A program made the translations under genes and the position numbers. The notes beneath the pieces were generated by a model. That model saw only the letters and a program-made list of their open reading frames with translations, searched no databases and was not told the origin of the DNA. This document shows positions 20,343 through 55,182 of a stretch of DNA of 64,000 nucleotides, one piece after another. The stretch is from NCBI GenBank assembly GCA_036852015.1, contig JAANDG010000077.1, positions 124,001 through 188,000 on the forward strand. The letters are read 5' to 3'. This DNA is from Pelodera strongyloides. Lineage: Eukaryota > Nematoda > Chromadorea > Rhabditida > Rhabditidae. Numbering within the stretch: position 1 is the first letter of the stretch; each line of letters opens with the position of its first letter.

Positions 20343-30102
<9,760 letters not shown>

Positions 30103-30115
30103 CTTGCCTGAAATT
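30103..30115 (-). promoter_or_regulatory. Acceptor just upstream of the akt-1 start codon
   Basis: On the minus strand AAATTTCAG then GCAAG then ATG. Either a spliced-leader acceptor or the acceptor for non-coding 5' exons further upstream. Confidence 0.55.
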
Positions 30116-32613: not shown

Positions 32614-33020
32614 ATGACGAGAAATAGTTTTGAAAATTAATTCATACGGTATTGGCAGGAACGGAATTCATCCTGAACGCACCCTTCGGCTATGCCGTGA
32701 GACAAGCACGTAATAAGCCAAATACCAGAAAGTATTCCAGAGAAGGTACAAACCTGATGTACTTCGCAGACCCAGGACTGTTAAGACTGGTTGCTCGTTC
32801 TCTTCAACTGTTTTCCTTGAACACCTCGAATTTGTCAGTCCTTCGCGTAGACAATACTACCTGTAAGCGTAGAATTTAACAATAACGCACAGAAATAATA
32901 TACAAAGCTTTCATAAGAATTCACAAAGGGAATAGAAACAGCCAACATTGTAAATTTGATTTTTACAAAATGGTAAAGCTGCACTGCCACACCGCCGAAA
33001 GTGGCAGGGATTTGAAATAT
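32516..33020. repeat. Left copy of about 0.5-kb direct repeat flanking a LINE fragment
   Basis: Shares collinear blocks with 35052-35632, for example TTCATACGGTATTGGCAGGA, GAAGGTACAAACCTGATG, CTACCTGTAAGCGTAGAATT and AAGAATTCACAAAGGGAA. The match stops at GATTTGAAATATC, where LINE coding text begins. Confidence 0.85.
32576..32612 (+). mobile_element. Poly-A relic with target-site duplication
   Basis: A run of about 37 A flanked on both sides by TGACGAGAAAT. The right direct-repeat copy lacks both the poly-A and the duplicated word. This looks like a retroposed insertion of which only the tail is left. Confidence 0.7.
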
Positions 33021-35045
33021 CAGGTGGTCTGCGGTGACTTCGACGCCAAAATAAGTGCCAGGACAGGCAATCTCGACCACAGTATTGGGCCCCACGCCAC
33101 AAGCTCTGCACCGTAACACCTCTGAACACGGAACCCAGGTGCCAGGACTCATCGACTCATATACAGATGCAAGCTGTTCCATACAAACAGCTTCTTCCCC
33201 AGACCGGAAGCGCTGGAGTTGGCGAAGTCCAACGTCCAACGGATAAGGTGTTTGTCGAAAACGCCCATAAATTGTGCAACCGAACCCATTTGGTACACGA
33301 TACATCCGTTCTCCCGTCAGTGGACGCTTGCTCTGACCACGTCCACCTTTTGCTGAGAACCACTATTATTCTACGCCGCTCCTATATAAAGCGAGCGTAC
33401 AGACGCACAAGGCGAACGAAAAGAAGTGGGATCCTGAATGAGCAGAAATTCCAGATGATTCTATTCGACACCAACCGTGGTACAAATCTTCTGTCGGTCG
33501 AGATCTTGGGTAAAGAACGCGGAATCCAATGCGAAGACACTCTGGTGTCAGCCCTACCGAACCAGCGACCGTACAAAGTGGCACCTTAATAACCGCCGTA
33601 CCCTCGTAAATGATCCGGGCACATCACCAGCTCAGCTCGGTCTGCCTTCGCGTGTCGCCGTTTTCTTGCGGAAGACCCGAAGAATCACAGAGAAGGCCGC
33701 TTGAAAGAAAGATGTAGCCCTAAACAGAATTCGAACCGTCAGAAAATCCCTTGAATCCCTCCCCTATCACCACTGGCCTGAAAGACTGCACAGGCTCTCC
33801 CTCCTGACCAATAGGAGAAAGATCGAATGCTAGTACCGAACAAGTCTTTAAAACTTGGTGGCTCCGTACTCTGGTCTGCCCTTGCTAAAGTCTTCACAAG
33901 CTTTATGAAAACAGCGAAGTTCCCCGAACTTTGGAAGACGTCACATACTCGCCTCATTCCAAAGAAAGGTGACCGGAAGATCTCGACAACTTCCGTCCCA
34001 TATCGGATATCGGTACTCAGCTGACTATATAAACTATTCTCGAGGACCCTTCTAAACCGTATTCGCAACACTCTCGACGGCCAAAAACCACCAACCCAAG
34101 CTGGCTTCCGACTCCCCAATACTCATTGACGTAGCCCTCGAAATGGCCCTCCGCACTCTCATCTGGAACAAATCTGGCATATGCATCAACGTCACATACC
34201 TCTCCCACCTGATCTATGCGGACGACACCGTCATATTCGCTCCCGGAATCTCCACCGCCTCAAGAATGCTCAAGAACCTCAGAGGTGTGTGTGCTAAGAT
34301 CGGCCTCGATATCAACACGAAGAAGAGAGAAGGCTTACGAAGAAGTGGTCAATATGCCAATCCGTCATCATGCTGGATGCCGGATGGTCATCCTATCGAC
34401 GAAGTGGAATCGTTCGTTTACATCGGTCGCCCCCACGGAAACATCCCAGACGTGGACGTCCAGATCTAAACATCCCGAGGGGGAAGCTAGTGCAAGACTC
34501 TTCAACTCACACGTCAATCCAGCCCTGTCATATGACATCGAGAAGACATGGGCAACCACTAAAGAAAACCGAAGAAACCTGCACTCCTGGCAGTCACTTC
34601 ACTCAGAAGGTTATAAAACGCTCCACGCTGGGAACAAACCTTAGACAGCAGCGAGCAAATGGAGTCAGAAGTCAGCACCTTCGGGCACAGTCCGGTATTG
34701 AAGACACTGGAGAAATTCTCTACAAGGCGAAACGTCTCTGGGCAGGCCACATCTGTCGTCAGTCTGATGATGGATGGGCGAAGAAATTGACAGATTGACG
34801 AAGAAGACACTCTGTTCTGGAAACCCTGGGGTTATAAACGACCTACTGGACGCCCGAAACCCAGATTCTGCGATTCGGTCAATCGAGAATTTAACGCTGC
34901 CGCTGCAGTGAAGGCAAAACGTCGTGCCCGCACAACGTACCGACACTCGAGCCGAATCGCCCAATATAGAAGAAAGTGGAAGGCGGGATCCACGCACCTT
35001 GCTCAAGCTGCTAAAGATGGATCTCTAAGGTCTAGGGTAAGTGGG
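33021..35045 (+). pseudogene. Degenerate RTE/jockey-like non-LTR retrotransposon
   Basis: Fragments in several frames follow the LINE order. First an endonuclease part (VVCGDFDAKIS near 33032; RKRWSWRSPTSNG near 33207-33245). Then the start of the reverse transcriptase (LIPKKGD near 33953, QAGFRLP near 34097) and its catalytic box HLIYADDTVIFAPG (YADD at 34215-34226). Last, a C-terminal part (RLWAGHICRQSDDGWAKK near 34735, GRPKPRFCDS in another frame). Many stops and frameshifts and a shortened reverse transcriptase show it is dead. No poly-A or target duplication belongs to it directly; it is bounded by the long direct repeats. Confidence 0.85.
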
Positions 35046-35051
35046 TAAGGT

Positions 35052-35632
35052 ACCGAGATGGAGATGGAGTTTCTCCGAAAAAATGTAATGCACTAACGGA
35101 CTAACGCTTAATGCATTGATAAACAGTTTTGCAAGTTAATTCATACGGTATTGGCAGGAACGGAAAGCCCACCCTGAATGCACCCTTCGGCTGCGTCGTA
35201 AGACAATCACGTAAAAATTAAGCGAAATACCAAAACCAGAAACGAAGCCAGTTACACTGCGTATTTAATAATTTAATAAAGATCAAATGCAAGCATTTTG
35301 AGAGCCCAAGTCAACAGTCAAGTAACTGTGAGAAGGTACAAACCTGATGTGTACTTCGCAGATGCAGGACTGGTAAGACTGATTGCTTGTTCCCTTTGAC
35401 TGTTTTCCTTGAATGGTTCGACTTTTTCAGTCCTTGGCGTAGACAGCACTACCTGTAAGCGTAGAATTTTACAATAAATCACAGTCATAATATACGAAGT
35501 TTGCATAAGAATTCACAAAGGGAAAAGGGAAAACAGCCCAACATTATAAATTTGAAAATTTACAAAATGGTTAAGCTACAAACTACAAACTGCCACACAA
35601 CCGAAACGAAAGTGGCAGGGGCTTGAAATACC
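35052..35632. repeat. Right copy of about 0.5-kb direct repeat flanking a LINE fragment
   Basis: Same blocks in the same order as 32516-33020, with about 60-80 bp extra near 35220-35330 and no poly-A tract. Confidence 0.85.
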
Positions 35633-39500: not shown

Positions 39501-42211
39501 CGGGAAGTTTCACCCCGCGTACATGCAAGGAAGGCACTGGCTTAATTATTCTAGAGATAGAGGACACAGAGCGTGTCGAGTCTGCCATCAAACGGCGCAT
39601 TCTAAAGCGCGTGATCCCCAGACGTGGGTATCAATCAGGGAGTGCACTAAACCAGGCTTGACAGTCAAAAACCTGTGTTAATACATCACTGAACGTGAGC
39701 ACTGAGCACGCAACCACTGCGCGGCACAACAAGAAATACACACCAACAATACGACTATCGCTTAACTACCGTAATTCATACAAAAAATCGAGACTACTCG
39801 AAGTGGAAGTGACTAGCTTTTAAGCAGTATTACTAGTATTACATCTCCATAGAAAAGGTAAATTAATTGGAAGAAACATGTGGTTTCTAAACTCGAACTT
39901 GAAAATAAATTAACTAAAATCGTGCAAAACTAACGCTCAAACAATACAATAAAAGGATTGTCCATTCGGATCTTCTCATCAACAAAAATTGTTCATTAAA
40001 GAGCTTTCTTTTTTTGCTCTGTTGTCTTTCTTTTTTTTTTTCTTTTTTTTTAATATTCGGACCCCCAACGTTTTAAATTAATAATCATAGTTCGGACTGA
40101 TCCATCACGATCACAATTCACAATATCAAATCACTCAATTCAATTTTTTACACGTTGGGGAACCTATTTGATCGACCTTCTTTCTGACCGATCTTTAGTT
40201 TTTCTTTTTTTTTCTTTGTTTTATACCTAAGAACCTAAGTGTGTCGAGACCCTTTGAAGCATGGTGGGTCAGCGTCAGCGTGACATGGTAACTGTTGGCA
40301 TCAGGGCAGGCTGGCAGGCGACAACTATATCCAGTCAGTGGCAGTGACAGCACCACATAACGGACCTATAAAATAAGCGCCGTTTACCCAGGATTCGGCT
40401 TTCGAGAAGAAACCGAGCAAGTGGTTTTTATATGGACATGAGGAAAATGAAACTGGCGGTGCCATGACGTATAAAAATGAAGGATAGATTAAGTGCAGTC
40501 TTTCCACTACGATACTCCGCATTTATCCGAAAATATTTTTCATGATTTCGACTCCGGTGTACATTTGAAATCACCTTTGCTCAGTTGCTTTCGGAAACAG
40601 CCAAACAGCCCATATCAAAAGCGTCCTATACTCGTACACTTAGTTCTCAGCTGCGCTAATGGGTCTGCGCATGAAATTGGAAAATGCACCAACCATCACG
40701 GGACCGTTTCCATAGACAAGGGCAAGGTGAGACAGATCCTTGTTAGGTAACCTTCCAAACTTCATGCAACGTCCGTTTACGCGAGTTATTTAGCCCAGTT
40801 GTTATTAAATGGAAAACCGAACAAAAACATACATTCAAAGCGATGTCCGATATTGCTGGGACTTGATGGCGCCTGGCGCCCTCGAGCTGTTCGACGACTG
40901 CGACAGGCGAATAAGGGTGATCCGGTGGTCCAAGCCAACAACGCAGTGGGTGAGGGGGTCTCGCACAGCGGTGAATGCAGCAGGATTACGACGAAAACTG
41001 ATACCTAAACAAGAAAACATTGTTACAAATAACATCTGAAGTATTCGTCGCATTCGTCGGTCGATTATTACTTTTGAATTCACACACAAACATAAGGGGG
41101 GGGGGCAAAATAGTCAACTGCTGCACTGATCCAGTTTTGCGTTTGCTACAATCAATACCCACCACAACAGTAATGGGGGGGGGGCAAAATGAGCTTCAGA
41201 CGAAACAAAGTACGAAGTACAGTGAAATGATCAGTGTGAAACGTAGGCGTGATCAGTGATGAAGGCTCGACGGTGATCACCATATGTCGAGCCTATCACT
41301 ACTGATTCGAGATCTCCGTCACATGCGCTTCCGGACATGCCATTAGTTGCACAAAACCAAATCATGGACCAACATTCACCAGGCCTGGACCAGCTCCATA
41401 AGTGGAACATCGTTGTTCCGTTTCCGCACGTATTTAGCCCCAGTTCACAATAAAAAAAGGAAACCGAACAAAAACATACATTCAAAGCGTTGTCCAATAT
41501 CCATGGGACTTGATGGCGTCCACGAGCTCGAGCTGACCGACGACGACAGCGATGAGGCGCATAAGGATGATCTGCTGATGATACAAGGCAACGTGGTGGG
41601 TGGTGGGTCCCGTCGTCTCGTATATCGATAAACGCAGCCAGCAATACAACGACGAAAACTGACGCCTAAAATAGGAAGCATTAACATCTAGTCTTCACAA
41701 ACATTAAAGGTTTCATTAACAACCAAAGATTAGTTTTGAATTTATACATTTACACAAAAAAACGGGGTGAGCTTTTTGTCAAATGCTGCACCAATTCACG
41801 TTTGCGTTTTTTTTTTAAATCAATGACCATTAGTAATTGGTAAAATGAGCTTCAGACGGAACAACATACAGTGAAACGATCCGTGTGATACGTATGCGTT
41901 ATCGTTGCTGACAGCCTCGACGTTGATGAGCACTTGCTGGCGGCCGACGCTGTGATCCTAGCAACTGTTCGGATTGTGTGCCTCGTAGATATCCAGCGTA
42001 CTAATATCCACCGAAGGCTGTCCCTAAAAAAACAAAGAAAATTAGAAACAGCCTCTTACTTATACCGCCAGCAGGCCACCACAAAAAAAGATTGAACTTT
42101 GAGAAATTAATGCAGCAAGGTGGGAACGGAACTGCAGAGAGCACTGATAGCCCTTGACAAATAGACAAGGCCCAAGGTTTCAAGTCGAGAATAAAACAAG
42201 AGGGAACGTAC
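36593..42211 (-). other. Region of non-coding, exon-like cassettes
   Basis: No conserved protein. On the minus strand several segments end in strong donors of the form AAG/GTATGTT (at about 38008, 38300, 38776, 39068) and start after TTTAG acceptors (about 38151, 38929, 39240). A 230-bp cassette is present twice (about 40800-41010 and 41445-41670; shared AAAACATACATTCAAAGCG and ACGACGAAAACTGA). Each cassette is open in some frame, but phases do not join and the frames differ between copies. Confidence 0.45.
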
Positions 42212-45200
42212 CAAAACGACAAGATGGGAAATCCATGTTATTGTTTGTCCCTGAACCGTCGATCATCGAACCATCCTCTTTGCGACCCCAACAACCAGCA
42301 GGGAAATGAGCGACAGTCCTCTCTAAAAAAAACGAATTAAAACGGAGTGAGCAAAACACAGAAAACAGGCATAAAAGTGGCGAATTGACTACACAAAATA
42401 AAAGGGCAAGGTTAAGTCTTATATCAAACCAAAACGGTTATTACTCACCTCATATTAAAGGTCTCACGCAACGGTCTTCCGAGACAACTTGTAGAAGAAT
42501 TGGGAAAAGTTGCGCACGAAAGCACCTAGTCCTTCCCACAAGCTCCGCCAAATGAAATGGGCAGCAGCAGCAGACGCACGATGCAACGGGTTGGCACCCT
42601 AAATAACATTTAAAAATAAACATTAGGATAAGAGAAAGTACCAAATAGCAAAACACAGACATTCAAGCATATTAGTCACAAACGCTTAAATAACCTACCA
42701 TAAACATTAGTGGGCGGGAGGCGTTCCTTCTAGAACTATCTTGTCCGTATTGGGGGTTGCCTTCAGTCAGAACCTCCAAACTTCGAGCGTGAAACGGACA
42801 AAGTGATATACTTCTAAAAAATAATCGATAAGCAAATCAATAACACTCAGAAAAATGCACGACACTCATATTACTACAAGAACAAATCTATTTATAAGTA
42901 TGTAACGACTCACATCTCAATAAGGATCTCACGCAACGGTCTTCCGAGACAACTCGCAGTAGAATTGCGAAAAGTTGCGCCCGGAAGCGCCTAGTCCTTC
43001 CCACAAGCTCCGCCAAATGGGCGGCAGAAGCACGATGCAACGAGTTGGCACCCTGAAAAAGAAATGATTAAAAATGCAAGTAGGCGAACTTATTGTTAGT
43101 TAGAATACGAAAGTACGAGATAACAAACAACACAGTGTTGAAGCCTTGAAGCCGAAGCTCAAGAAAAATACTTGAAAACTTACCATATACATTAGTGGGC
43201 GGGAGGCGTTCCTTCTAGAACTATCTTGTTCGTATTGGGGTATTGACTTCAGTCAGAACCTCCAAACTTCGAGCGCGAAACGGACAAAGTGAAATCCTTC
43301 TAAAAAAATAATCGATAAACAAATCAATAACATTCAGAAAAATGCACGACACTCATATTACTACAAGAACAAATCTATTTATAATTATGTAACGACTCAC
43401 ATCTCAATAAGGCTCTCACGCAACGGTCTTGCGAGACGACTTGTAGTAGAATTGTGAAAAGTTGCGCCCGGAAGCACCTAGTCCTTCCCACAAGCTCCGC
43501 CAAATGGGCAGCAGAAACATGATGCAATGGGTTGGCACTTGGCACCTTGAAAAAGAAATGATTAAAAATGCAAGTAGGCAAACTTATTGTTACAATGCGA
43601 AAGTATGGAATATCAAACAACCCAGTGTTGAAGCTGAAGTTATCAGCAAAAAAAATTCATGAAAACTTACCATATACATTAGTGGGCGGGCGGCGTTCAT
43701 TCTAGAACTATCTTGTCCGTATTGCGATGTTGACTTCAGTCAGAACCGCCAAATTTCGAGCGCGAAACGGACAAAGTGAAATCCTTCTAAAAAATAATCG
43801 ATATAAACAAATCAATAACATTCAGAAAAATGCACGACACACATATTACCAGGGGTACAGGGTGGTGCGTGAAAACACGCACGAAACAGCTCCGGCTGCT
43901 CCGGATTGGTTTTGACCACCTCCGGACTCCGGAAGCAATTCGAAATTAATATATTTCACCGAACCATGGTTTATTAAAACGGTCTATCATTAGCTAAAGA
44001 AAGCACCTCCAACCATCTCCATTTACGCACGGAATTTATACCCTATTGGGTATAAATTCCGTGCATATTATTACTACATGAACACATCTACCTTAGTCTA
44101 TCTATAATTATGTAACGACTCACATCTCCTCAATAAGGCTCTCACGCAACGGTCTTGCGAGACGACTTGTAGTAGAATTGTGAAAAGTTGCGCCCGGAAG
44201 CACCTAGTCCTTCCCACAAGCTCCGCCAAATGGGCAGCAGAAACATGATGCAATGGGTTGGCACTTGGCACCCTGAAAAAGAAATGATTAAAAATGCAAG
44301 TAGGCAAACTTATTGTTACAATGCGAAAGTATGGAATATCAAACAACCTAGTGTTGAAGTTGAAACAGAAACTAACTGACGACAGCAAAAAAAATTACGT
44401 GAAAAACTTACCATATACATTAGTGGGCGGGCGACGTTCATTCTAGAACTATCTTGTCCGTACCGGGGTGTTGACTTCAACCAGAATCGCCTTAATTCGG
44501 GCGGGAAACAGACAAAGCGAAATCCTTCTAAAAAAACAGACATATAACTATATGAGAGAAATACAACTCAATGCAAAATACACATTTACAAGAACAATTC
44601 TATTATAATACGAATGCAATACTTACAAATAATTAAGGTTCTCATGCGACGGCGCTCCGATGCCAACTTGTAGACGAATTGTCAAAAGTTGTGCCCGGAA
44701 GCACCTAGACCTTCCCACGAGCTCACCGCCAAATGAGAAGCAGTAGCATTATGCAACGGGTGGGCACCCTAAAGAAGAATATTTAAAATGCAAGCTTAGG
44801 ATAAGAAGGTACCAAATTGCAAACAACAGTGTTCCAAGCGGTCTTGAAGTTGAATCTAAAAAGAAAAGCAAACAAAGGGGTCTAGATAACCAAAAAACCT
44901 ACCGTAAACATTAGTGGGCGGGGGGCGTTCATTCCAGAACTATTTTGTCCACATTCGCGTGTTCACCTCGGTCAGAACACCCAAAATTCCAGCGGAAATT
45001 GAAAATGGACAATTTGCAATCCTTCTGAAAAAATATACTAAAATACATGAGAAAAAAAAAGAAAAATGCAACTCAACGCAAAACACAGATACGACTTCTA
45101 TTATGAAACAGGCAATGGCTTACAATTCATTAAGGATCTCCACGCAACGCACTTTACGCACTTCCCGCACCTTTCAATCGAAAAGGAGCGGCAGTACCTA

Positions 45201-46548
45201 GATCTTCCCACGCGCCAGACGAGTAGAGACAGCGGACAGCCATGGCATTCTAAACAGTAAAGTTTTAATACTCTGATAAGAATATAAAAAACCATGAGCA
45301 AATGAGCAATCGCAGTGCTTGCTTTAGACTTAAATTTAAAAAAGCTAGTAAACAATTAACCACTTTAGTAACCTACCATATACATTGGTGGCTTTCCTCC
45401 AACTATTTGGTTCTTTTCGGAGTCTTGAACTCGTGCCAAAAAAAAGTTCACAAGGAGGGAATTGTCCTTGAACATCGAACCATCCTTAGTGGGACCTGGG
45501 ACCCAATCAAACAGCGACCGTACTGTCTGAAAAACTTACGGCAATTAAAAAGCAAATAATGAGGGACTGGGGGAATACAACATAGGGGAAACAGGAGTGG
45601 AAAGTGCAACTGAAGGGATAACTTACATTTCATTAAGGTTCGCACGCAACGGTGTTCCGGAACCAACTTGTGCAATTGTGAAAAGTTGCGCCCGGAAGCA
45701 CCTAGTCCTTCCCACGAGCTCACCGCCAAAGGGTAGCAGGAGCAATGCAACGGGTTGGTGGTACCTAAAGAAGAACATTTAAAATGAAGTTTTCACAAGA
45801 AAACTACATAATTGCCGAGACCGAAAAACGCCACTAGTTGGTCGACATAGTTTTCACCGAAAAAAAATTGTGACCGGTCAATGACCATTTGTTAACCAGC
45901 TGACGAGAAAACTTGGTCACGAGAAGGTCACCAAGGAAGGGGTTACCAAATGGGCTGGCAAACAAGGGAAAGTTGAAGCTAAAAGCAATACAAACACGTA
46001 ACGGCTCAAATACCTACCGTATACATTTGTGGGCGGGAGGCGTTCATTCTCGAACTATCTTTTCCGTATTGCGATGTTGACTTCAGTCAGAACCGCTAAA
46101 ATTCGAGCGGGAAACGGGGAAACGGACAATTTGGAATCCACCTGAAAAAAAATCAACCGATAAAAAATCAATAACATTCAGATTCAATGCAAAATGCAAA
46201 CACACAGGTTACAAGAACAGTTCTGCAGCTGCAATGACTTACAATTCATCAAGGACTCCGTGCAACGGTCTTCTAACACCTCCCAATAGTGTTGCCATGC
46301 GCCAGCCGGATAGAGGCAGTCGTGGTATTCTAAACAATATGTTTTACCATAAAAGAAACCACGAGCTAATATGTAGCGCTTAAATTAGTATTGCATTTAA
46401 ACAACAAGCTAGTAAAATTAAATCCATTAACCACTAAATAACCAACCATAAACATGTGTGGGAGGACTGTTCCGTCCTTGAAACGGCCAATCTTGGACTT
46501 AAAGAGCAGGGGGGCTCACATAGATCCCAACGGGCGAAACCGACGAAG
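42212..46548 (-). repeat. Eight-unit tandem array of paired exon-like cassettes
   Basis: Unit length about 490 bp. Reading the minus strand, each unit has a B cassette then an A cassette. B: 46548-46447, 46141-46018, 45526-45377, 45024-44903, 44527-44412, 43786-43671, 43299-43184, 42813-42700, plus a diverged one at 42322-42212. A: 46329-46243, 45764-45627, 45249-45124, 44768-44637, 44272-44124, 43545-43401, 43052-42914, 42598-42449. All keep AG acceptors and GT donors (GTAAG, GTAGG, GTTGG or GTGAG). Lengths vary modulo 3 and stop codons are scattered, so they do not encode a shared protein. Core words (+ strand): AGTGGGCGGGAGGCGTTC in B; GTTGCGCCCGGAAGCACCTA in A. Possible nature: exons of a long non-coding RNA, 5'UTR exons of akt-1, or a decayed gene family. 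Confidence 0.7.
43850..44064. mobile_element. Insertion with terminal hairpin inside the array
   Basis: Extra about 220 bp between the third and fourth units, with a perfect hairpin at its right end (CACGGAATTTATACCC, inverted GGGTATAAATTCCGTG, 44024-44060). It explains the wider spacing there. Confidence 0.6.
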
Positions 46549-47409: not shown

Positions 47410-50400
47410 TCAATCCATATTGGAGACATCAACATCAGCAAACGTGCAGTCCTTTTCAAGTCCCATGTTCCAGTCGTTGCCAGTTCCATTGTTGAATGCA
47501 GAAGTGACCACGCGGAACCAACCTTTCTCACCCTATCAATAAATCAATAAGTTAATCAATTATCAATTATCGTTTAACAAATCAATTAACAATGAAGTTA
47601 GGAGACGTGGTGGCCGACTGAAAACGACAGCACTTGACATTTAAAACGCGCATACTTTGACCCTAGTATAGAGCCACACTTGAAGCGTAAACGTACGTTA
47701 CATAACGGAAACGTAAACGTAATTCACTTCGAAAGGCAAAATATGTAAGCTAAGCGCCTCGTGCCAACAAAAACAGTATACCTACAGTCGTAATAAATGT
47801 TATGTTATGTTAGTAGTATACCGCTTTGACGCTTCCCGCCAGTTGTACATTCAGTAGTAAACTCGTGGACTCATTACCTTCTAACAAAAAAACGGGAATA
47901 AGAAATTTGCATCTTACCCATTCCTCTCCCCAGCTGTTTCTAGCGATCCAGTATTCCGTTCCGTCAGTGTCCACACCCCATCCACTCAGAGTGACGATAT
48001 GATTAGACTACAATTAACTTTTTTTAAATTAACATTCTCGGTATCAACATGCTTCGAAAAGTACGCCATATGTGCGCCGTTTTTTCGCCGCACTTCCATT
48101 TTCATTAGTTGGGGTCTTGGGCCCAATTGGGAAACCTTTTGCTCACCTCCATGTCGCTCTTCTCTCTGTAAACACCGTTTACATATTCGTATTCAAACTT
48201 CTTCGTGGCTCCAATACCGCAAGCGATAGGTCCGCGCGCCTTGATTTCAGCCTTGATGTTCTCAATTCCTTTCACCTGAACAAAATACGTGCAAAGGAAG
48301 CGAAATATAGCAGTTTGTCAATTACATATAGTAAGCTATGTATTGTATCTGGAATTCTGGAACAGGACAGCGAGCGAATATGACTATGGACCACGGATAG
48401 TTTTAGAATCCTTTTATAAAGACTCCTGGCTTTCGTCCTGAGTTTTCTGAAAGCAGAAAACCCGTCCTTTTCAAACCCAACGAACGTGTCCTTTTCAAAC
48501 GCTTTCTTTGCATGTATATATTGTGAGATTCGCTTTTTCTATATCTATATTGTAGTGCTTAAATTAATGTAAGACTTGTAAAATGTATTATATTAGATAA
48601 AGTGTTAGATATAAACAAACCGGTGCATAATCCTTGACATAGTGTCGCGTGTAGTTGGTCAATGCAAAGCAGTTGTCCGGCCAGCAAGAGCCGCAACGGT
48701 GGTAGGGGGTGCATTCTAAATAGTTTTTGCTCTATTCAAAAACTGAGGTGTAGTGGCTTTCCGACGTAGACAAATGCACGCACACACAGCACGCACGCAC
48801 ACACGCACACACACGCAAACGCGCACACATACACACATACACGCACACACACCCACATGCACATACACGCACGCTCACACACACACACACGCACGCACGC
48901 ACACGCACACACATTAGATAGCTACCATACCTCCATTGGTGGCTCTGTAGACATTGCATCCCTCCTCGACAAGACCATGAGTCTTGGCGTATTCGAGCAC
49001 ATCTCCGACCTCTCCGCCCTGGCAGTTACCTTTGCCTCCGCAGTCGATAATCTCCTGAATACATCTACATTAAGGCCTGAATGCGTAAACATTGACTCTA
49101 AACATAGCCATATGAATGAGTACTTGTTAGAAAAGTGGAGCAAAGTACCTGTGGTGAAACCATGGTCATCGGCCATCTATTCTTGCGAGCGATGTTGAAC
49201 CGATCATTGAGCATACCTAAGTTGTTTGGTATTTTTTTTCTGAACCGCTGCTTACACTGGTTTGATTCTTATGGGGTTTCCAAGTATGCCAAAAACCGTG
49301 CATTTTCCTTCCAATCGTATCAATTGCAAAATAGTGTGCCAGTCTACCGTAATTTTGCGTAATTTTGACACATCCGCACTATAGAAAACCCGCCATCAAA
49401 GCTATTTTTTTTTGTTGAATAAATGGTCCCGTGGCGATCGGTCGCAAAAACTGCCTGTAGCTATTATCGTGTAGTGCCAAGATACGGTAAATTTTTCGAT
49501 ACTTGGAAGGAAAATCGGCCATACTTGGAAACCCCATTACTCACAGTTCCATTCGGTAAACATCTGCTTGCTAAAATTTACAGTATCAGTGAAGTGCAAT
49601 CTTGGCAATATGCCAATCTTACAGTACTCCTAACATATTTGACCCACCAGTTGTTCCAAACACCCAGCAGGAGCCACAGTACACTGGAATGTGCTGGTTT
49701 CTAGTTGGAGCACAGTAGTTGACTCCGGAGACATTTCTCCAATCCCACGCCTTGGGAAGGGCATTGAAATCAAATGTGTGGTGCTCCCAGTCTCTGTTGT
49801 AGGTCCTGAAATTTTAATTACCTAGAAAAAGTTATACTATTAATAATAATGAAAATATCTTAGACTCCGAAACTTAAAAACAAAAGTACAATTGATTTTA
49901 TTGATTGACTATTTGTTTATTGATTGAATTTACTATGTATTAGCCTTGCAGTCTTACTTGTGCTTGAAGACCTTTCCACTCTTTTTGAGTCCGCCGATTC
50001 TTGTCATTCTAGGTGTCTCCTCCTTCTTTTCCGTCTGAATTGTAATTTATTTAATGGAAAATTCAAAGTTTCGTATCTCCAAACCCACTTTACACTTGAG
50101 GCTGAAGAAACTGTGATTTCGTACCGCCCATTTTTGGCAGACTATCGCACGTAAAGACGTGCAGAATTCACAGTTTAAAGCAATGCGTGTGCGACAGTGA
50201 CGCAGGAATGGTGCCAACTAGAGCGAGTGTTTTTTACTCATGGGATTAAAGATCACCCACTAATGGCGCTCTAACCGCACATGTTGTTGGGAATGCCTCA
50301 CAAGCGCAAAAATTACCATCCATTCTTTCTTGCTCTTTGAAACCTTCACATCCTCCCAAACCTCCTTGAGCAGGGTGGTATCCTCGCGCTCATTGGACTA

Positions 50401-52560: not shown

Positions 52561-55182
52561 AGCGAGGTTTGGAGTCCAAATGAAGTGAAAAAAGAGCCTA
52601 GCAAAAGCCCGGTTGACTACTGATAACCAATTGAAACACTGATAAAGAATATTCTGGGAACCAATTCAAACATGGCGATAAGATTTTTTTATTGATCACT
52701 TAGAATAAACGTGTGATTATTGAAGAAAGGAAACCTGTAATTTGGTTAGGTGCTCTGGGTTAGACAATGCACAGACACCAGCATGCGTACGATATGGTCC
52801 CACCAACGGCCACGGATGCCTTGATAACTTGATAATAATAGTTTATTGATGATACAGCAAGTTAAGTTAATATACGGCAAAAGGCAGTCGTACGATTATT
52901 TGATCACTTATATGTGATCAAATATATGTGCTAGAAACATAGTAAATTCATGGACCTTTCAATATTCCCTGAGTTTCATTACCAATATGGCCCCTGTCAT
53001 TAGCTTTCTTCTTCAAGTTGCCTTATAAAGACTAGTTGCCAGATTGGTCTAGTGTGCAACTGGACTCCAGCATCAACAATACACAACAGGACCGCCACGG
53101 GGCTTTCTATGCATATACCCGATCCATAGTGAAGCAGCGCGTAGCGCGCGCAGACAAGTTCTCACACTCCCTCGCCTATAACCAGTGCCCGAGCGCGCAA
53201 TTGCGCTCGCAGCAGATGTAAGTCGTATGCGAAGCGCCGCTATGGTTAAAGACAGATGTTTACTATCACTGTATCAACAGTTTATTCGATTCTATATTTA
53301 GCAATAGATTTCCGTAGCTAGAAATGTTCGCAGATCTTCCTTGATGCTTCAGCTGAACTCGGGCCTTGTATGTATTTTAACATTTTTGTTGTCAATTACT
53401 CAAGCATGTTATCTTTCTACTTCTACAGAGGATCGATTTTTATTGTGGATTTTTTTGCTTATTGACACTTTTTTTGAAGTAATGTTAGAACAATGGAACA
53501 CATTTTAATTTTTAAGATCATGATGATAATAAATCATTCCAAAGATACAATTTACCTTTATTTCCAGTTATACCCTAGTATATCTTTTGTATATTCTAGC
53601 AGCTGAACGAAAGTATATATTAGATCTACTACTTGATAGATAAAAGATAATAGTGCGAGGGAAACTGGTTGCAGTTTATGTGCGACATTGTCGTCATTGT
53701 TAGGAGTTTACCACCATCTGCTTATTGCATAGTATCTTATTCTTTCTATTTTGCATTTTGAGATCGTTTTTGTTACACTTATTTTTTTCCATAATTTTGC
53801 TTTCATTTAATTTTTAAACTGGTCTTTTTGTACATTGTACTTGACCTCCCTTCAGTGTGTAAAATGTATGATATTCCCACAACTTTTTTCCTTTGTAAAT
53901 ATTACATGTTCATTCTTTCGGTGGAGGTTAAAAGTTATTCAGACGATTTTTACTATGTTCAGAATGTTCGGAACCGGAACGTCATTTTTGGGCTCATACT
54001 ACGGTATCTTTATGCGGATCCTTCAAATTGAGTTGCAAATTTGCAAAACATCCAGATCGTATTTTGTTCGAGATCACAAATTGTCATTTTTCCAACTAGA
54101 CTCCCGGTCTCCGTTTTCTTTTTTTTTGACCGTTGTTCATTGTACATACACCCAGTCTCTCATAGGCAGGCTTTCGTAGCCCTCGGCGATGCCCGGGCTA
54201 TCGCCGGGCTAGCCCGCTAGGCAAAAAAGGCCTGCTAAAAGCCCGGAGGAAAACTGGATTAAACGGACCGATTCCTTGTCTTTTTTCTCGTTTCCAATTG
54301 GAACGAACACCGGTTTTTGAAGGATAATGAACACTTTCGCTTATTTATTGTTGGGATGCCTGGGGATTTAGATGATTTGTAAAGAGAGGGATAAGCTACA
54401 AATAAAGGTACCTTTATCAACAATTGTAAATAAATAAATAAATGAATAAATAAATCTTTTACGCTTCAATAGCGTGCGCTCATTCTATTAAAGGCAGTCC
54501 TGAGGTTCTGAGCAGTACGACGAGTTCCAGATGACAAATTGCTTCACGTCTTCCGGCTAGGGCCATGAGCAAACTGTTTGTAGATCGTTCCGAGATATAG
54601 AGGTACTGTAAGCATGAAACTAAGGTACTGTAAGCATGAAACTAAGGTACTGTAAGCATGAAACTAAGGTACTGTAAGCATGAAACTAAGGTACTGTAAG
54701 GTAAGCATGCAACTAAGGTACTGTAAGCATGAAACTAATGTACTGTAAGCATGAAACTAAGGTACTGTAAGCATGAAACTAAGGTACTGTAAGCATGAAA
54801 CTACCGACAATGTACTGTAAGCATGAAACTAAGGTACTGTAAGCATGAAACTAAGGTACTGTAAGCATGAAACTACCGACAATGTTTCCAATTCGTACCT
54901 TCTGAGCATGATATTCTATGGCAACCATTGCTTGACACACCCTCGCATTCCTTGACTATGCCTTCCTTATCACCGTTGACCATGGTTTCCGATGGAACAC
55001 CATTCACCGCGACATTTCACGACACCACTTGACACTCCCACGGTTTCGGTTAGCACCCACTGACCATGATTTAGCTAGCGCCCTGATTTTTACCTCTCGC
55101 TGTAAATAAAACATAAAGGCTAAGTTTTTTTCATAAGTAAATTCGTCCCTAAATTTGCCATATTGATTTTCCAACATGTAAT
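52561..55182. other. Intergenic, nothing recognised except a minisatellite
   Basis: Upstream of the cathepsin gene. AT-rich with a GC-rich hairpin-like patch at 54176-54240 (GATGCCCGGGCTATCGCCGG). Short ORFs look non-coding. Confidence 0.5.
54598..54890. repeat. 22-bp minisatellite
   Basis: About 13 near-perfect copies of AAGGTACTGTAAGCATGAAA+CT. Variants include a GTAAG duplication near 54690 and two copies followed by ACCGACAATG. Confidence 0.95.

What the first reader, a model, noticed from the sequence alone, without database searches (positions are those of the whole stretch)
42212..46548. Tandem array of eight two-cassette units with kept splice sites but no kept reading frame
On the minus strand cassettes alternate B-A-B-A without a break for eight units. 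All 16 have AG before and GT after, although the units have diverged and the donor context itself varies (GTAAG, GTAGG, GTTGG, GTGAG). Lengths vary modulo 3 and stops fall in most copies. Keeping splice dinucleotides without a protein frame suggests a repeat-built, spliced non-coding transcript or a set of alternative 5'UTR exons.
Basis: partly seen in the sequence, partly recalled or inferred. Interest (0 to 1): 0.78.

Follow-up and report, generated by a model that had tools for sequence, protein, structure and literature searches.

The report
Repeated noncoding exon pairs beside AKT
In a roundworm genome, upstream of the AKT kinase gene, a pair of exon-like blocks was copied about eight times in a row with working-looking splice sites but no shared protein frame, so it probably makes a spliced noncoding RNA, although nothing here shows that it is transcribed.

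Summary
On the minus strand, 42,212-46,548 holds alternating exon-like cassettes, each with AG before and GT after, separated by T-rich gaps of mostly 99-139 nt. In boundary-blind alignments 4 of 4 splice columns are invariant across eight B copies and 3 of 4 across eight A copies; in A6 the AG sits one base further on. Cassette lengths are even over modulo 3 (6/5/5), no frame is shared, and the array translations and RNA scans tested give no Pfam or Rfam family. B2 and B4-B8 are one family, B1 and B3 are weaker relatives, and A1/A3 split from the other A copies. DNA searches find no copy elsewhere in the 160-Mb genome, but they miss diverged copies. The animal is a rhabditid nematode (COX1 96% identical to Litoditis). 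The array lies 12-16 kb upstream of the AKT start. Best reading: a repeat-built, spliced noncoding RNA gene, working like Firre's exonic repeats. No transcription data were available. Exons outlast introns between older units but not among units 5-7, so constraint on exon sequence is only weakly supported. Interest is moderate.

The parts
46447..46548 (-). cassette B1 (102 nt), acceptor CCCTTCAG, donor GTTGGT; weaker relative of the B family, shared columns mostly near the donor
46243..46329 (-). cassette A1 (87 nt), groups with A3
46018..46141 (-). cassette B2 (124 nt)
45627..45764 (-). cassette A2 (138 nt)
45377..45526 (-). cassette B3 (150 nt), longer variant; shares a 17-nt block (16 identical) with B9
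45124..45249 (-). cassette A3 (126 nt), groups with A1
44903..45024 (-). cassette B4 (122 nt)
44627..44768 (-). cassette A4 (142 nt)
44412..44527 (-). cassette B5 (116 nt)
44124..44272 (-). cassette A5 (149 nt)
43787..44123 (-). intron A5-B6 (337 nt) carrying an inserted dispersed repeat of about 195 nt
43671..43786 (-). cassette B6 (116 nt)
43401..43545 (-). cassette A6 (145 nt); acceptor AG shifted by one base (CAAG)
43184..43299 (-). cassette B7 (116 nt)
42914..43052 (-). cassette A7 (139 nt)
42699..42813 (-). cassette B8 (115 nt)
42449..42598 (-). cassette A8 (150 nt)
42212..42322 (-). cassette B9 (111 nt), B3-like, donor GTACGT; not found by the B profile at E up to 1
41870..42023 (-). 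next exon-like block A9 (154 nt); not related to the A cassettes
40772..41927 (-). second tandem duplication: 41417-41927 and 40772-41277, 68% identical; by reading, three splice-like sites are kept in both copies
30100..30107 (-). start of the AKT coding region: ATG 5 nt after a TTTCAG acceptor; downstream neighbour on the same strand
47410..47412 (-). stop codon of an apparent upstream neighbour gene on the same strand, followed by AATAAA; bounds the array's promoter region
   Evidence: by reading

Best explanation
A locus-specific, spliced noncoding RNA gene on the minus strand, whose exons are mostly copies of a two-exon unit. Transcription is inferred to start between about 47.4 and 46.55 kb and to run through the array into further exon-like blocks at 42.0-40.8 kb and perhaps beyond. 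Splicing across short T-rich introns would give an RNA of alternating B and A modules. The array grew in steps: two older unit types alternate (units 1 and 3 against 2 and 4), then B-A units were amplified, probably by unequal exchange (units 5-8). With no reading frame to keep, indels and stops accumulated freely, while splice sites were retained. I infer that the repeated modules act as multivalent binding sites for an RNA-binding protein, as in other local-repeat lncRNAs. Shown: repeat anatomy, splice-site retention, absence of a shared frame, no copy found elsewhere by DNA search. Inferred: transcription, splicing, the order of duplications, module function.
For: Splice dinucleotides are in register and nearly invariant. 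The chance that four randomly drawn ungapped columns are all invariant is 0.0019 for B and 0.0026 for A; for A only 3 of 4 columns actually are, because of the A6 shift. Donor variety matches donors read by eye in the AKT gene of the same window (GTTGGT twice, GTAGGG, GTGAGA, GTAAGT). Composition over 18 cassettes and 17 introns: 44.2% T in introns against 27.1% in cassettes. Exons of units 2, 4 and 6-8 stay 78-94% alike, apart from B2-B4 at 72%, while introns of all these pairs except 6-7 are at 36-69%. The one inserted repeat found lies in an intron. No shared frame; no Pfam match at E up to 1 for seven array translations. Four DNA queries from the array hit only this locus.
Against: No transcript evidence of any kind. 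Among units 5, 6 and 7 exons are no better conserved than introns (exons 84-99%; introns 86-92% and 76-96%), and units 7 and 8 keep exons as alike as units 6 and 7 do (94 and 88% against 93 and 91%) although their introns differ far more (57 and 52% against 87 and 96%); simple purifying selection does not explain that, exon-limited homogenisation or intron replacement might. With only the six most alike copies the splice-column probabilities are 0.044 and 0.084. No conserved RNA structure in B or A alone; the joined B+A fold is matched by 4 of 200 column shuffles, but that control ignores dinucleotides. 12 of 18 cassettes have at least one open frame taken alone. B1 and B3 are weaker relatives. 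The genome searches are insensitive: searches found only their own query, not even the other units.
Confidence: 0.58

Rival explanations
1. A relic: exon-bearing DNA that was tandemly duplicated and is now neutral, with splice sites kept because most duplications are recent.
For: Units 5-7 are 84-99% alike in exons and similar in introns, so those splice sites are not independent observations; with the six most alike copies the splice-column test is weak (0.044 and 0.084). No transcription evidence.
Against: More diverged copies (A2, A4, A8 at 81-82% pairwise; A1 against A3 69%) still keep AG and GT, while neighbouring columns vary.
Confidence: 0.16
2. A fast-evolving or decaying protein-coding gene with tandem exons, whose true exon ends or alternative splicing restore a frame I did not find.
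For: A exons have an open frame in 6 of 8 copies; B+A length is a multiple of 3 in 5 of 8 units; indels in A2 and A4 of +2 and +1 cancel. Variable columns are uneven over phases in some subsets (A5-A8 3/11/10, five B 22/12/15, A2/A4/A7 17/6/11).
Against: 6 of 18 cassettes are closed in all frames; the concatenation has 23-29 stops per frame; the uneven phases are not one raised phase shared by the subsets; no Pfam match for seven array translations.
Confidence: 0.13
3. Alternative 5'UTR exons (or outron exons) of the AKT gene, spliced to its first coding exon at 30,107.
For: Same strand; among the translations tested between array and AKT none matched a known family apart from a reverse-transcriptase fragment on the other strand; the AKT ATG exon starts at an AG acceptor 5 nt upstream of ATG; the minus strand is T-rich over most of 30-47 kb.
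Against: 12 kb gap; the acceptor position and SL1 genes in this genome fit trans-splicing of AKT; splicing a B exon such as B6 there puts an upstream ATG in another frame (by reading).
Confidence: 0.12
4. A host gene for small RNAs in the introns (box C/D snoRNAs or mirtrons), with the exons as by-products.
For: Tandem noncoding exon units with short introns recall the IPW-A/SNORD116 array (listing and abstract starts).
Against: 0 of 17 introns hold a C/D-like pair of boxes (0.26 expected); intron fold z-scores lie between -1.8 and 1.2 except -6.7 for the one with the inserted repeat; no Rfam match at gathering in the window and one sub-threshold match, E 0.98, to a palindrome in 36.0-47.5 kb; intron cores are the least conserved part between older units. 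H/ACA boxes were tested only through Rfam.
Confidence: 0.01

Closest known systems
Firre lncRNA and its exonic repeating RNA domain, RRD (PMC4820808; 12 passages seen)
   Same: A local repeat found in the locus and rarely elsewhere, consistently overlapping exons (7 of 13 human, 11 of 23 mouse exons as the paper states), in a noncoding RNA.
   Different: Mammalian and shown to be transcribed; one exonic repeat type; RRD nuclear retention and hnRNPU binding shown. Here two exon types alternate in strict tandem and nothing is shown at RNA level.
IPW-A exons of the SNORD116 host transcript (PMC4742849, PMC9369261, PMC11608373; search listing and abstract starts only)
   Same: Tandemly repeated noncoding exons in one transcript.
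   Different: There the introns host C/D snoRNAs; here 0 of 17 introns look like that.
ced-2/set-23 locus repeats of nematodes (PMC12587179, part 1 of 3 of the text read)
   Same: Noncoding local repeats in nematodes, reported only at one locus.
   Different: Repeats of about 300 nt in introns and 3' region, four copies, conserved between species; here exon-like repeats whose conservation in other species could not be tested.
Mutually exclusive exon arrays (as in Dscam; recalled, no call)
   Same: Tandem homologous exons with kept splice sites.
   Different: Those keep one reading frame (recalled); here lengths are even over modulo 3 and stops occur.

Membership tests
lncRNA with exonic local repeats (Firre type) | repeat copies confined to one locus | tested here: inconclusive
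   four DNA queries from the array hit only this locus, but searches did not even find the other units, counts are stated as lower bounds by the tool, and a profile search of the genome was not possible; profiles find nothing more in 184 kb
lncRNA with exonic local repeats (Firre type) | repeats coincide with exons of a spliced transcript | not testable with these tools
   splice signals are in place, but no RNA data
lncRNA with exonic local repeats (Firre type) | no protein-coding frame | tested here: met
lncRNA with exonic local repeats (Firre type) | repeat acts as RNA localisation or binding module | not testable with these tools
   no structure or motif demonstrated
snoRNA host gene (SNORD116 type) | snoRNA in the repeated introns | tested here: not met
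   0 of 17 introns C/D-like; no Rfam match at gathering score
tandem protein-coding exon array | shared frame, lengths in phase | tested here: not met
   lengths 6/5/5 modulo 3, stops in all frames of the concatenation
dispersed transposable element | copies elsewhere in the genome | tested here: not met
   (limited sensitivity), against 39 other places for the repeat inserted in intron A5-B6 among 40 candidates scored

The most novel reading that the evidence does not exclude
A nematode lncRNA whose body is a modular polymer of two alternating spliced exon types, built by repeated duplication next to akt, with splice sites under selection and exons kept alike as multivalent protein-binding modules that may act on AKT (insulin-pathway) expression in cis.
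Probability: 0.15. Interest if true: 0.7.

Novelty: new member of a known kind. Interest (0 to 1): 0.42.

Why it matters
If transcribed, it gives a compact natural series, with old and young copies side by side in one genome, for asking what a spliced noncoding RNA must keep (splice sites, exon sequence or copy number) when no protein frame is involved. It would also be an invertebrate parallel to Firre-type exonic repeats, placed beside a central insulin-pathway kinase.

Tried and rejected
Rejected: dispersed transposon; snoRNA host and mirtrons; conserved RNA structure in single cassettes; Pfam families in seven array translations (one joined B6-A6 frame, six stop-to-stop frames) and in seven translations from 36-42 kb (five, one each); A and B cassettes being versions of each other (A2 and A6 against B2 and B6, at most z 1.5); A9 being a ninth A cassette. 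Further units in the 120 kb of flanking sequence fetched plus the window: none; the profiles found the 8 B and 8 A copies they were built from and not B9. Led nowhere: short motifs in B noticed by eye (TTCNNGAA, a small GUUC hairpin) were not tested against the general conservation of the cassette; models R1 and R2 were built, but this genome is not searched by models.

Full report
Setting. The window is G000:C77:124001-188000 of a 160-Mb, 1171-contig genome. Its COX1, translated with the invertebrate mitochondrial code, is 96% identical to Litoditis COX1, the top of 120 listed hits among 7997 scored, so the animal is a rhabditid nematode; the species is not assigned. Genes resembling SL1 RNA occur in tandem (32 matches among 50 scored candidates, best 47.7 bits, below the 75-bit gathering score), and one fetched locus holds two exact copies of the 22-nt SL1 leader (leader recalled).

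Neighbourhood. On the minus strand an AKT gene begins at ATG 30,102-30,100, 5 nt after a TTTCAG acceptor, with pleckstrin-homology residues by reading, a kinase-domain start (30.5 bits, just under the 31.7 cut-off for this one exon) and kinase exons whose best solved relatives are RAC-alpha and RAC-beta kinases. An apparent neighbour gene on the same strand ends at 47,412-47,410, followed by AATAAA (by reading). The array lies between them. The minus strand is T-rich over most of 30-48 kb (AT skew on + 0.14 to 0.32 in 2-kb bins, but 0.04 in 40-42 kb).

The observation. One search gives every cassette with its ends. All 17 from B1 (46,548) to B9 (42,212) have AG before and GT after. A-to-B introns are 99-101 nt in six of eight cases; the exceptions are A5-B6 (337 nt, with an insertion) and A8-B9 (126 nt). 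B-to-A introns B1 to B8 are 100-139 nt except B2-A2 at 253 nt. Introns are 44.2% T, cassettes 27.1%.

Is splice-site retention more than chance? In pairwise alignments of units 2, 4, 6 and 8 that ignore the boundaries, both ends stay in register in 12 of 12 ordered pairs for A and for B, with identity 1.00 at the dinucleotides (there the aligner gaps A6 into register). In eight-row alignments 4 of 4 splice columns are invariant for B and 3 of 4 for A; the exception is A6, where the AG lies one base later. Exon columns are invariant in 23 of 88 (B) and 23 of 82 (A), flanks in 2-4 of 18 each. The probability that four random ungapped columns are all invariant is 0.0019 and 0.0026; with only the six most alike copies it is 0.044 and 0.084, so the strength comes from the more diverged units.

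Unit history. One split (support 100/99) separates A1 and A3 from A2, A4-A8; the B tree has no supported branch. By pairwise identity B2 and B4-B8 are one family; B3 shares a 17-nt block (16 identical) with B9 and also scores with B6 (z 4.6); B1 scores best with B2 and B8 (z 4.4 and 4.1) but not with B3 (1.7) or B9 (-0.1). I infer that unit types alternated before B-A units were amplified. A9 (41,870-42,023) is unrelated to A. A second duplication lies at 41,417-41,927 and 40,772-41,277 (68%).

Exons against introns. For units 2, 4 and 6-8, exon identity is 78-94% except B2-B4 (72%), while intron cores of all these pairs except 6-7 are at 36-69% with many gaps. This favours constraint on, or homogenisation of, exons. 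Against simple constraint, units 5-7 show no contrast (exons 84-99%, introns 86-92% and 76-96%), and units 7-8 have exons as alike as units 6-7 but introns at 57 and 52% instead of 87 and 96%. I therefore claim splice-site retention firmly and exon constraint only weakly.

Coding. Six of 18 cassettes are closed in all three frames; 12 have at least one open frame alone. Lengths of B1-A8 are 6/5/5 modulo 3; B+A is a multiple of 3 in 5 of 8 units. The spliced concatenation has 23, 29 and 29 stops and longest open runs of 108, 82 and 80 residues. Variable columns by phase: five B 22/12/15 of 39/39/38; six B 17/14/19 of 39/38/38; A5-A8 3/11/10 of 46/47/46; six A 11/15/18 of 43/45/45; A2, A4, A7 17/6/11 of 45/43/45. 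They are uneven in places but show no one raised phase; indels shift the phase within several of these sets, so the test is weak. No Pfam match at E up to 1 for seven array translations (one, six).

RNA. No Rfam match at gathering over the window; the only match with E up to 1 in 36.0-47.5 kb is a palindrome (E 0.98). Single-cassette folds are at shuffle level (z from -1.74 to 1.86 for 16 cassettes). Consensus folds of units 2 and 4-8 give z about -1 for B and for A alone, and -2.4 (4 of 200 shuffles as good) and -2.8 (2 of 200) for joined B+A and A+B, a weak hint that ignores dinucleotide content. 0 of 17 introns look like C/D snoRNA hosts.

Uniqueness. Four DNA queries from the array and one from the downstream pair match only this locus; profiles find nothing further in 184 kb. 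The tool states that its counts are lower bounds, searches returned only the query itself, and profile searches of this genome are not accepted, so diverged copies elsewhere are not excluded. By contrast the insert in intron A5-B6 scores at 39 other places.

Interpretation. A spliced noncoding RNA built from tandem exon pairs explains the kept splice sites, the absent frame, the insertion lying in an intron and the apparent locus specificity. It works, by inference, like the exonic RRD repeats of Firre (PMC4820808, passages seen). It is not filed under the SNORD116-host type, whose defining intronic snoRNA was not found. Three paper searches listed nothing describing this array; they cover open-licence papers only. 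Whether the array is transcribed is the open and decisive question.

Noticed in passing
window 25703-25894 and 24141-24347, minus strand: Two alternative versions of the same AKT kinase exon (192 and 207 nt by reading, both multiples of 3), each best matched by RAC kinases; looks like mutually exclusive exons, as recalled for C. elegans akt-1a/akt-1b. The first seems to use a GC donor (AAG|GCACGT).
   Followed up: partly
window 43849-44044: Dispersed repeat of about 195 nt inserted in the A5-B6 intron; 39 other places score in this genome among 40 candidates scored of 519, with a 44-nt palindrome at its edge (44024-44067).
   Followed up: partly
window 40772-41277 and 41417-41927, minus strand: A second tandem duplication of exon-like blocks just downstream of the array (68% identical), matching only this locus, with the same splice-like sites in both copies by reading.
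   Followed up: partly
window 34056-34466, plus strand; 32740-33019 and 35330-35630: Reverse transcriptase fragment (RVT_1, E 2.5e-7) and a pair of 82% identical repeats on either side.
   Followed up: no
G000:C892 (L015-L017): Three COX1 copies in a 41-kb contig, two on one strand 15 kb apart and one on the other: looks like tandem and inverted copies of the mitochondrial genome in the assembly.
   Followed up: no
G000:C857, C26, C644: Tandem arrays of SL1-like RNA genes scoring below the Rfam cut-off; one fetched locus has two exact 22-nt leaders.
   Followed up: partly
window 54601-54875: Tandem repeat of a 22-nt unit, about 12 copies.
   Followed up: no
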